Below are positions 11,528-53,905 of a stretch of 64,000 bases of DNA, one piece after another (position 1 is the stretch's first letter; each line of letters begins with the position of its first letter). Where the stretch lies: assembly GCA_013343275.1 (NCBI GenBank), contig CP046106.1, forward strand, positions 1-64,000. The letters run 5' to 3'. A program made the position numbers and the translations under genes. This stretch comes from Candidatus Nanohaloarchaea archaeon. GTDB taxonomy: Archaea > Nanohalarchaeota > Nanosalinia > Nanosalinales > Nanosalinaceae. The notes beneath the pieces were generated by a model. That model was not told the origin of the DNA, did not search any database, and worked only from the letters and a program-made list of their open reading frames with translations.

Positions 11528-11629
11528 TAGTCCCCGCAGGATTCGAACCTGCGTCGAGAGGGCCAGGGCCTCTCATGATTTGCCACTCCGAGCAGTGCTC
11601 AAGAGTTTTGACCACTACACCAGGGGACT
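11528..11629 (-). tRNA. tRNA-Gln (anticodon CUG) with a 28-nt D-arm intron and C33
   Basis: Same acceptor (AGTCCCC/GGGGACT, A73) and D-arm exon sequences as tRNA-Gln(UUG). The anticodon stem is AGAGG/CCTCT with loop CCCTGGC, which reads CUG. Position 33 is C instead of the nearly universal U. A 28-nt insertion (ACTC...GAGT hairpin) sits in the D loop at the position seen in the other tRNA-Gln, and removal gives a 74-nt tRNA. A TTTTTAAGA promoter element overlaps the stop codon of the LAGLIDADG gene upstream. Confidence 0.85.
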
Positions 11630-17421: not shown

Positions 17422-17471
17422 GCATGCCGTTAGGCATGCTCCGAGATGGTGAAACTCTCTAGTTGAGTTTC
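17422..17471 (-). promoter_or_regulatory. Tandem hairpins immediately after the EF-1alpha gene
   Basis: Reading the minus strand, a perfect 7-bp hairpin (17465-17471 with 17451-17457) begins on the last base of the stop codon. After an 11-12 nt linker comes a second perfect 7-bp hairpin (GCATGCC, loop of four, GGCATGC; 17422-17439). The geometry matches the double hairpins at 22.9, 26.7, 52.9 and 53.2 kb. It may be a 3' end or stability element. Confidence 0.55.
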
Positions 17472-22862: not shown

Positions 22863-22919
22863 TCAAAATTCACCTGTGGTGAATTTTCGTGATTCCATAA
22901 AATCTTTGATTTTAGTCAT
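22863..22919 (-). promoter_or_regulatory. Double-hairpin spacer A with an 18-codon ORF (rps12-rps7)
   Basis: Exactly 57 nt form an open frame (MTKIKDFMESRKFTTGEF) from an ATG just after the rps12 stop to a TGA two bases before the rps7 ATG. The same bases form two perfect hairpins: TAAAATC/GATTTTA with an AAA loop, and a 10-bp stem AAAATTCACC/GGTGAATTTT with a 3-nt loop (22865-22887). The second stem sequesters the rps7 RBS. Equivalent elements lie at 52911-52967 and 53168-53224. Confidence 0.65.
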
Positions 22920-26634: not shown

Positions 26635-26726
26635 ATTATCTCCTTAGAAAAATGTTTTGTCGTGATGTCTGTAGTAATTAAAACAATCCTAGTTTTTATA
26701 AAGGGAATGGAGTTTGAGGGGAGTTA

Positions 26727-26776
26727 GAAAACACAATCCTGTGTTTTCTGCTACTCCGAAAATCTTCGATTTTCAT
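26727..26776 (-). promoter_or_regulatory. Double-hairpin element B (rpoA''-nusA)
   Basis: Just after the rpoA'' stop, the minus strand has ATG followed by hairpin GAAAATC/GATTTTC (3-nt loop; 26758-26774), a 9-nt linker starting with GGA, and an 8-bp hairpin GAAAACAC/GTGTTTTC with a 6-nt loop (26727-26748). The ATG opens a 26-codon frame, but unlike the other copies it does not end at the next gene. Same sequence plan as elements A, C and D. Confidence 0.6.
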
Positions 26777-26779
26777 CGT

Positions 26780-52475: not shown

Positions 52476-52910
52476 TTATTTCTGGCTCTCAAGCCAGTCG
52501 ATTAACGTTGTACGGTTTTTGTTGTCTTTCTCTGCTTCCATCGCAGCGTCCCAGTCGACCTCTTCCATGTCTTGAAGTGCGTCTTTGGCGTCCGTGATGG
52601 TTCCTGAGACTGCTTCTCTGTAGTCTTCAGTTACCTCTACTTCTTCCTCTTCTAGGGCTTCTTTCTCAAGTTCTTCATCGTAGTCGAAGTCTTCAAGGAC
52701 TTTGAGTGTTGCCTTTGATTTCTGGCTTCCGAAACCTGTGTAGATAGATTCTACTTCGATGCTTTCGGTTTCGATACCGTTTTCTGCTGCAACGCGCGAT
52801 TTTACGTCTTCTTCGCTCGGTGTAGCCTCGCCTTCATGGTTGAGACTTACTTCTACTTCTCTCCTGTCTAGGAGAGGGTTTTCTCTTACTGCTGTGATGT
52901 TTGCTTCCAT
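52476..52910 (-). CDS. rps24e: 30S ribosomal protein eS24 with C-terminal extension
   Basis: 144 residues. Core: NPLLDRREVEVSLNHEGEATPS, IETESIEVESIYTGFGSQKSKATLKVL. Archaeal S24e is usually about 100 residues; here an acidic C-terminal extension of about 40 residues (from about 100) follows. Its ATG directly follows the TGA of the 18-codon spacer ORF. Confidence 0.93.
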   Translation of the reverse strand: MEANITAVRENPLLDRREVEVSLNHEGEATPSEEDVKSRVAAENGIETESIEVESIYTGFGSQKSKATLKVLEDFDYDEELEKEALEEEEVEVTEDYREAVSGTITDAKDALQDMEEVDWDAAMEAEKDNKNRTTLIDWLESQK

Positions 52911-52967
52911 TCAAAAATCGCCCCCGCGATTTTCTTCTTGTCCAGAAATTCTTTGAATTTCGTACAT
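52911..52967 (-). promoter_or_regulatory. Double-hairpin spacer C with an 18-codon ORF (spt4-rps24e)
   Basis: 57 nt, open as MYEIQRISGQEENRGGDF, with the TGA abutting the rps24e ATG (TGAATG). Hairpin 1 is GAAATTC/GAATTTC with a 3-nt loop (52945-52961). Hairpin 2 is AAAATCGC/GCGATTTT with a 4-nt loop (52914-52933) that presents GGGG, the likely RBS of rps24e. Aligned to spacer D: MYE-QR-SGQ-EN is shared. Confidence 0.65.
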
Positions 52968-52979
52968 AGTATTCACGTT

Positions 52980-53168
52980 TTATTTGACTCTTATTGCGTA
53001 TTTTCCTGGAGTGTTAATTTCCAGTTTCTCTGCGATTTCAGAATCTTCGGGATCGTAGATAACTACTAGTCCGCTCCAAGAATCGGATAGATCGTTGTTC
53101 TTGCATACAGGGCATTCTTGGGCATCTTCTACAATACGGTTACAGTTTTTACATGCTTTTTCAGCCAT
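52980..53168 (-). CDS. spt4: Transcription elongation factor Spt4
   Basis: 62 residues with two zinc pairs (CKNCNR and CPVCKN) and the conserved SWSGLVVIYDPEDSEIAEKL. Partner of Spt5, not in this window. Its ATG overlaps the TAA of the preceding spacer ORF. Confidence 0.96.
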   Translation of the reverse strand: MAEKACKNCNRIVEDAQECPVCKNNDLSDSWSGLVVIYDPEDSEIAEKLEINTPGKYAIRVK

Positions 53169-53224
53169 TAGAAAACCACCTTATGGTTTTCGGCCTGTCC
53201 AGAAAATCTTTGATTTTCGTACAT
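53168..53224 (-). promoter_or_regulatory. Double-hairpin spacer D with an 18-codon ORF (rpoE-spt4)
   Basis: 57 nt, open as MYENQRFSGQAENHKVVF and overlapping both neighbours by TAATG. Hairpin 1 is GAAAATC/GATTTTC with a 3-nt loop (53202-53218); a linker TGGACAGGCC follows; hairpin 2 is GAAAACCA/TGGTTTTC with a 5-nt loop (53171-53191) that exposes AAGG, the likely spt4 RBS. Closest in sequence to spacer C, in structure to A and B. Confidence 0.68.
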
Positions 53225-53802
53225 TATTCTTCACCTTCTTCCTCTTCTTCGGTCTCTTCCTGCTCTTCTTCGTACTGTTCGATCCATTCTTCTTTTCCGA
53301 GGCCTGGCTGTCTCATTGTCAGATTGATCTTGTTGGTGTCTTCCTTTCCTAGTGAGACTGCGATTATTCGGGCTGTGACGACATCTCCTGTTTCAAGTGT
53401 GAACTGGTTCTCTTCTGAGACCAGCATGTTGTTCTCCTCGTCGTGGTTGACGTACTCGTCCATTACCTGAGATACGTGGCATAGGCCGTCGAAAGGCCCG
53501 ATTCTGATAAATGCTCCGAAGCTTGTTACGTCTACTACTTCTCCGAATACAACTTCGTGGAGCTCTGGTTCGTATACAAGTGCTGAGTATTCTACATCGT
53601 AGTGTACTCCTGCGTCCTCTGGCTCGATTTCTCCTCCTTCAACGGAGTTTACTTCCTCGATTGCGAGGACTACTCCTACTTCAGGACTGATATCTCCTTC
53701 TGTTTCTGCTTTAAGGCCTTCTGTGACGCTTTCCTTTACGTTCTCTCCCAGATGCTCTGGGGGAACTCTTACTGATTCTTGTATTGTTTTTCTTTTGTAC
53801 AT
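53224..53802 (-). CDS. rpoE: RNA polymerase subunit E' (Rpo7)
   Basis: 192 residues from MYKRKT (53802). N-terminal RNP domain with TIQESVRVPPEHLGENV; C-terminal S1/OB domain GEVVDVTSFGAFIRIGPFDGLCHVSQVMDEY, ending in a polyglutamate tail. The stalk subunit that pairs with Rpo4 (not seen here). Confidence 0.96.
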   Translation of the reverse strand: MYKRKTIQESVRVPPEHLGENVKESVTEGLKAETEGDISPEVGVVLAIEEVNSVEGGEIEPEDAGVHYDVEYSALVYEPELHEVVFGEVVDVTSFGAFIRIGPFDGLCHVSQVMDEYVNHDEENNMLVSEENQFTLETGDVVTARIIAVSLGKEDTNKINLTMRQPGLGKEEWIEQYEEEQEETEEEEEGEE

Positions 53803-53905
53803 TTGAGACACTACCTCCATTCAGAGGAAAGGGAAGTCTGGAAGGGTATAAGCCCCTTCTTAATCTTCTACCTCTGTGGAACATTTAACAGGTTGACGAC
53901 AATTT

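What the first reader, a model, noticed from the sequence alone, without database searches (positions are those of the whole stretch)
53168..53224. 18-codon ORF built from two hairpins, exactly filling the rpoE-spt4 gap
The 57-nt gap is an open frame overlapping both neighbours as TAATG and is at the same time two perfect hairpins (7 bp with AAA loop; 8 bp with an RBS-bearing loop). The sequence plan (ATG, GAAAATC-AAA-GATTTTC, TGGA linker, GAAAA...TTTTC, stop) recurs at 52911, 22863 and, less completely, at 26727. A ribosome translating the ORF would open both stems and reach the next start. I know of no named element like this; it could be a translated coupling or attenuation device.
Basis: partly seen in the sequence, partly recalled or inferred. 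Interest (0 to 1): 0.82.

Follow-up and report, generated by a model that had tools for sequence, protein, structure and literature searches.

The report
Hairpin inserts bridged by relay mini-genes
In salt-loving nano-sized archaea (Nanohaloarchaea) a short double-hairpin DNA element sits between genes of operons that make ribosomes and RNA polymerase, and nearly every such copy is built as a tiny gene of about 18 codons that touches both neighbours, so that ribosomes could pass from one gene to the next across the insert.

Summary
The rpoE-spt4 gap holds an 18-codon ORF (53168-53224, minus strand) sharing TAATG with both neighbours and made of two perfect hairpins. It belongs to a dispersed double-hairpin family found in 14 of 19 genomes of the window's nanohaloarchaeal family. 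Among 76 copies between co-directed genes, 65 carry a 14-29 codon ORF ending at the next start codon (28.2 +/- 3.7 expected when 5' and 3' halves are swapped between copies). Stem 1 is read in all three frames: hairpins and openness are conserved, the peptide is not. 75 of 76 operon copies carry a Shine-Dalgarno motif at hairpin 2; copies elsewhere almost never do (3 of 64 strands). In the sister species the rpoE/spt4, L23/L2, L14/L24, L5/S14 and S5/L30 junctions are empty and touch or overlap. Best reading: a palindromic repeat at coupled stop-start junctions, kept where it acts as a translated relay preserving termination-reinitiation. It works like mycobacterial MIRUs; homology to them was not tested. 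Hairpins covary equally in non-operon copies and are missing at some junctions that keep a relay ORF, so an RNA-regulatory role is not shown. I found no expression data.

The parts
53168..53224 (-). relay ORF MYENQRFSGQAENHKVVF* between rpoE and spt4, TAATG overlap at both ends
53202..53218 (-). hairpin 1: GAAAATC-AAA-GATTTTC
53171..53191 (-). hairpin 2: GAAAACCA-TAAGG-TGGTTTTC, holding the AAGGTGG Shine-Dalgarno motif of spt4
53224..53820 (-). upstream gene rpoE (S1 + Rpb7-N domains)
52980..53168 (-). downstream gene spt4
52911..52967 (-). second relay ORF MYEIQRISGQEENRGGDF* between spt4 and S24e, TGA directly before ATG; hairpins GAAATTC/GAATTTC and AAAATCGC/GCGATTTT
52476..52910 (-). ribosomal protein S24e gene
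22863..22919 (-). third relay ORF MTKIKDFMESRKFTTGEF* between S12 and S7, stem read in another frame, stop 2 nt before the S7 ATG
26722..26777 (-). double hairpin between rpoA2 and a NusA-like gene; not a relay (ORF 26696-26776 ends 61 nt before the gene, no GGTG)

Best explanation
The feature is a copy of a lineage-specific, dispersed double-palindrome element, about 50-57 nt, of nanohaloarchaea. At the stop/start junction of two translationally coupled genes such an insert would break coupling, because reinitiation in a haloarchaeon fails over gaps of about 20 nt. It is therefore retained (or shaped) only as a relay minicistron. The upstream gene's tail, which at empty sites carries the Shine-Dalgarno of the downstream gene, delivers ribosomes to the ATG in front of hairpin 1; these read about 18 codons through both hairpins, open hairpin 2 and so free the Shine-Dalgarno inside it, and stop on or next to the next start codon, where the downstream gene is (re)initiated. 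Shown by sequence: dispersal, empty sites in the sister species, open frames, overlaps at the ends, an operon-specific Shine-Dalgarno motif, use of three frames. Inferred: insertion as a mobile element, translation of the ORF, opening of the Shine-Dalgarno, reinitiation. The peptide itself most likely has no function.
For: 65 of 76 copies between co-directed ORFs hold a frame that starts before stem 1 and stops -2..+4 nt from the next start, against 28.2 +/- 3.7 (max 40 of 2000) when 5' contexts are swapped among real copies. Stem 1 lies in all three phases, 23/12/30. SD-like motif at the 3' end in 75/76 operon copies versus 3/64 strands of non-operon copies; 16S ends GGATCACCTCC. Sister species G001 lacks the copy at rpoE/spt4 and at four of the five filled S10/spc junctions, where the genes overlap or lie 0-4 nt apart. 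Relay ORFs without the hairpin pair at L22/S3 in G010 and G003 and at spt4/S24e in L160 and L164. Distance dependence of reinitiation: PMC10666635.
Against: No ribosome or RNA data. 11 of 76 copies fail the test (some have multi-hairpin forms with longer ORFs, some look frame-broken: G013:9581, G004:477478). Operon copies were found with models trained on operon copies that include the downstream start, so the SD and end context are partly selected for; the open frame and upstream start are not. No transposase or clean target duplication was found, so mobility is inferred from dispersal and empty sites only. Copies related by descent are not independent, so the swap-null deviation overstates significance.
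Confidence: 0.72

Rival explanations
1. RNA regulatory device: the two hairpins are selected as an attenuator or translational switch that sets the stoichiometry of neighbouring gene products, with the ORF as its sensor.
For: Compensatory changes in both stems at orthologous junctions; the Shine-Dalgarno lies partly in the 3' arm of hairpin 2 in 46 of 47 GGTG copies; many copies lie in ribosomal and RNA polymerase operons.
Against: Equal covariation in copies outside operons; very few G-U pairs, about 1-1.5% of cells; the sister species lacks most copies; junctions with relay ORFs but no hairpin pair; no single regulon.
Confidence: 0.13
2. Selfish palindromic repeat only: open frames and overlaps are by-products of its AT-rich, stop-poor sequence and of short intergenic space.
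For: Copies outside operons exist; single frames are open over the element in 67% of cases there.
Against: 65/76 against 28.2 in the swap null, with start, frame and stop in register; SD motif almost confined to operon copies.
Confidence: 0.07
3. The ORFs encode a functional small peptide family.
For: Phase-0 copies share M-x-E-n-Q-R-f-S-G.
Against: The same hairpins are read in all three frames, giving unrelated peptides (MYENQRFSG.., MKIADF.., MRKSKIFS..); amino acids change together with compensatory stem changes.
Confidence: 0.02
4. RNA processing element: the hairpins are cut (RNase or splicing-endonuclease type) to separate the cistrons.
For: Some non-operon copies lie in or beside tRNA 3' sequence and one near a 16S 5' end.
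Against: Cutting would not need an open frame with stop/start overlaps or a Shine-Dalgarno; no bulge-helix-bulge was noticed, but it was not tested systematically.
Confidence: 0.06

Closest known systems
MIRU, mycobacterial interspersed repetitive units (Supply et al. 1997, as described in PMC12548453)
   Same: Short dispersed repeat, apparently mobile, at start codons, with an ORF inside it whose end is coupled to the next gene; thought to let the insert sit with little effect on expression
   Different: Archaeal; built of two hairpins with a Shine-Dalgarno in the second; overlaps of 0, 1 and 4 nt instead of a fixed -4; all three frames used. Sequence homology not tested
Translational coupling by termination-reinitiation at overlapping genes (PMC6728339, PMC10666635)
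   Same: Stop/start overlaps of 1 or 4 nt, Shine-Dalgarno in the tail of the upstream ORF
   Different: Here a third, peptide-irrelevant ORF stands between two genes and overlaps both; coupling not measured
Bicistronic design leaders used in synthetic biology (PMC5995908 abstract; detail from general knowledge)
   Same: Short first cistron carrying the Shine-Dalgarno of the second and ending on its start
   Different: Natural, inside operons, made of palindromes and dispersed in the genome
Rickettsia palindromic elements (RPE; PMC10969869)
   Same: Palindromic repeats kept in frame with the host's coding sequence
   Different: RPEs lie inside genes, are about 150 bp and encode a conserved peptide; these lie between genes and use three frames
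REP/BIME repeats and RAYT transposases (PMC3733652 abstract)
   Same: Paired small palindromes in intergenic DNA
   Different: No Y1 transposase in any of the 19 genomes; operon copies are open frames

Membership tests
MIRU | dispersed short repeat with an ORF coupled to the downstream gene at its start codon | tested here: met
[quoted passage not shown]
   stop-end minus start: +1 in 24, +4 in 21, 0 in 16, -1/-2 in 4 copies
MIRU | sequence homology to mycobacterial MIRU | not tested
   no MIRU sequence was fetched
Termination-reinitiation coupling | overlap or very short distance between stop and next start | tested here: met
   65 of 76 at the downstream end; upstream distance -4 to +22 nt in 50 of 55
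Termination-reinitiation coupling | translation of the downstream gene depends on translation of the upstream ORF | not testable with these tools
   needs a reporter or ribosome profiling
REP/RAYT | Y1-type (RAYT) transposase in the genome | tested here: not met
   PF01797: 0 of 19 genomes, positive controls found
Rickettsia palindromic element | insertion inside a gene, in frame, with a conserved peptide | tested here: not met
   between genes, three phases
Known structured RNA (Rfam) | match at gathering threshold | tested here: not met
   only tRNAs in the window
Attenuator or riboswitch | alternative, mutually exclusive structures tied to a signal | not tested
   only single-state folds were computed

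The most novel reading that the evidence does not exclude
A new class of archaeal element that adds translated hairpin relay modules (one, two or several hairpins in a single open frame) to coupled junctions, and that the host uses to tune how many ribosomes pass from one cistron to the next in ribosomal and RNA polymerase operons.
Probability: 0.15. Interest if true: 0.82.

Novelty: new variant of a known kind. Interest (0 to 1): 0.63.

Why it matters
It gives natural filled and empty sites, in the same operon of sister species, for testing whether ribosomes cross inserts by termination-reinitiation in archaea, and whether a hairpin that hides the Shine-Dalgarno blocks or tunes that passage. 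It suggests that a coupling-preserving intergenic repeat like MIRU arose also in archaea, in some of the most constrained operons. For annotation it explains dozens of ORFs of about 14-35 codons between ribosomal and other genes of nanohaloarchaea.

Tried and rejected
Chance: rejected by shuffles, models and the swap null. Conserved peptide: rejected by the three frames. REP/RAYT mobility: no Y1 transposase. Known Rfam RNA: none. Carriage by viruses: two exact patterns gave no hit in viral contigs, a narrow test. tRNA intron: followed only far enough to see that the tRNA-associated copy in L118 lies in a 3' tRNA fragment behind an intact tRNA-Pro and that ARAGORN finds no tRNA around the copy in L122. 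My first openness null (structure-preserving shuffle) was too lenient, because real copies are stop-poor in every frame; I replaced it by the swap null. Alignment A3 held one manually shortened sequence and was not used. No paper in the held library describes the element.

Full report
WHAT IS THERE. The minus-strand stretch 53168-53224 is an 18-codon ORF (MYENQRFSGQAENHKVVF*) whose ATG shares TAATG with the rpoE stop and whose TAA shares TAATG with the spt4 start. It consists of a 7-bp hairpin with loop AAA, a TGGACAGGCC linker and an 8-bp hairpin with the AAGGTG ribosome-binding motif in loop and 3' arm. Similar double hairpins lie at 52911-52967 (spt4/S24e), 22863-22919 (S12/S7) and 26722-26777 (rpoA2/NusA-like). 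The last has the hairpins but not the relay property.

FAMILY. A covariance model from four copies (the three relay copies of the window and the L22/S3 copy at 802118) finds 35 places in the own genome at E up to 10, 22 of them at E <= 0.01. A second model from 32 copies finds matches at E <= 0.05 in 14 of 19 genomes of the same taxonomic family. In the other nine genomes of the phylum there are two weak hits. Named relatives are Nanohaloarchaea, for example SG9 (contig length 1,118,574, as G003) and isolate NHA25 (1,027,595, as G009). Only 150 candidates per genome were scored, so counts are lower bounds.

STRUCTURE. The stems show many compensatory changes: 6 of 16 pairs changed on both sides at the orthologous L22/S3 junction of six genomes, with 97.8% of cells paired and 0 of 500 shuffles as high on pairing or covariation score; 5 of 16 at spt4/S24e in five genomes; 13 of 15 across 32 copies. 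The alignments were fitted to the model and lean towards it; those were aligned by sequence alone. Non-operon copies covary equally (many of these sites are counted on both strands), and G-U pairs are rare, about 1-1.5% of cells. I therefore read the covariation as a property of the dispersed palindrome, possibly kept at DNA level (template-switch mutation at imperfect palindromes is described in PMC7202029, abstract), and not as proof of an RNA function.

OPERON COPIES ARE RELAYS. I classed hits by mechanical ORFs: 76 lie between co-directed ORFs. In 65 a start codon in front of stem 1 opens a frame that runs through both hairpins and stops -2 to +4 nt from the next start. Swapping the 5' contexts among real copies gives 28.2 +/- 3.7, maximum 40 in 2000 trials; with ATG starts only, 61 against 23.4 +/- 3.7. 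Stem 1 is read in all three phases (23/12/30), with peptides such as MYENQRFSG, MRKSKIFS and MKIADF. The 3' end carries a Shine-Dalgarno-like motif in 75 of 76 operon copies but in 3 of 64 strands of 32 non-operon copies; the genome's 16S ends in GGATCACCTCC. Of 55 relays examined, 45 have an SD-like motif before their own start, and 50 start within -4 to +22 nt of the upstream stop. Copies related by descent are not independent, so these deviations should be read as strong, not as exact probabilities.

EMPTY SITES. In the S10/spc ribosomal operon the window genome carries copies at L23/L2, L22/S3, L14/L24, L5/S14 and S5/L30. The same-genus genome G001 carries only L22/S3; its other four junctions have gaps of 0-4 nt or overlap by 4 nt. 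Gene names at some of these junctions come from operon order and N-terminal sequence, not from a profile search. Other genera carry other combinations: G003 at L4/L23, L14/L24, S4e/L5 and L5/S14; G009 at S4e/L5 and S5/L30; G010 at L23/L2. At rpoE/spt4 the same-genus genome has GGTGAAGAATAGTGGCC where the window genome has GGTGAAGAATAATG-element-TTTTCTAATGGCT: the Shine-Dalgarno in the tail of rpoE now precedes the relay ATG, and the element supplies a new one for spt4. Insertion, with loss or repeated insertion, explains the pattern; the alternative, many independent losses of an ancestral element, is not excluded for single junctions.

HAIRPINS CAN BE MISSING WHERE THE ORF IS PRESENT. At L22/S3, G010 has MRKSEVVSVIHTQGENQ*-TAATG and G003 has MNEIKSSRRNSQMNHIAKGEVQ*-TAATG without the pair of perfect hairpins. 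At spt4/S24e two named relatives have MNSFKDKVNADGGEK*-TAATG and MQKDNRGDF*-ATG. This suggests that the relay is what the operon needs and the hairpins are what the element brings. That these short ORFs derive from decayed elements is inference.

MECHANISM. Reinitiation in Haloferax volcanii falls to 40-60% of native at gaps of 13-14 nt or is reduced by 60%, and is abolished at about 22 nt (PMC10666635). An insert of 50 nt would uncouple the neighbours, hide the new Shine-Dalgarno in a stem and leave untranslated RNA open to polarity, probably by FttA in archaea (PMC12548453). A relay ORF removes all three problems. Translation, opening of hairpin 2 and reinitiation are inferred, not shown.

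RELATION TO KNOWN SYSTEMS. The closest in logic are the MIRUs of mycobacteria, described as apparently mobile repeats that insert at start codons with an ORF coupled to the gene at -4 nt spacing (PMC12548453, citing Supply et al. 1997). The present family works like a MIRU but is archaeal, hairpin-based and not bound to the -4 overlap; sequence homology was not tested. It is not a REP/RAYT system on the evidence here (no Y1 transposase) and not an RPE (between genes, three frames). I found no paper in the held library that describes it; subscription papers are largely missing from that library.

VERDICT. The coupling idea is supported by comparative sequence. The attenuation idea, and the claim that no such element is named, are not.

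Noticed in passing
window 52476-52910 (S24e) and L042 1550-2614 (S3): Both ribosomal proteins end in the same C-terminal extension of about 45 residues (..VSGTI[ST]DAKDA[IL]..ME..D..A...AEK.NKNRTT[FL]IDWLESQ); Pfam covers only the S24e core. A shared tail on two ribosomal proteins is unusual.
   Followed up: no
L118 697-751, L122 743-797, L138 678-731: Non-operon copies are embedded in sequence like a tRNA T-loop/3' end (TTCAAATCC-element-TTCGAATCC-GGG..); in L118 behind an intact tRNA-Pro. Suggests insertion at, or capture of, tRNA 3' ends.
   Followed up: partly
L089 (G001:734661-734715), L101 (G003 rpoE/spt4 and spt4/S24e): Modular relays with three or more hairpins in one open frame of 34-35 codons, e.g. 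MVETLRVSGIKGLLGLLQPRNLKGFGLAKTHGGEF*.
   Followed up: partly
L044 / G000:676572-676623: Direct repeat GG(T/C)GATTTCGAGTGAT flanks the copy: the upstream gene's end looks like an element tail, a possible target duplication or an older copy fused to the gene.
   Followed up: no
L065 / G000:867672-867725: A 16-codon relay-like ORF (MKIKDFPVYLHTEGEK*, TAATG) with only the first hairpin, between genes that look like topoisomerase VI B and A.
   Followed up: partly
L120 678-735 (G006): A copy of the element lies just outside sequence that looks like the 5' end of 16S rRNA.
   Followed up: no
window 11528-11629: A tRNA match of 102 nt, long enough to suggest an intron.
   Followed up: no
window 17422-17471: An unrelated pair of perfect hairpins (GCATGC-CGTTAG.. 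and GAAACTC-TCTAGTT-GAGTTTC), not matched by the model.
   Followed up: no
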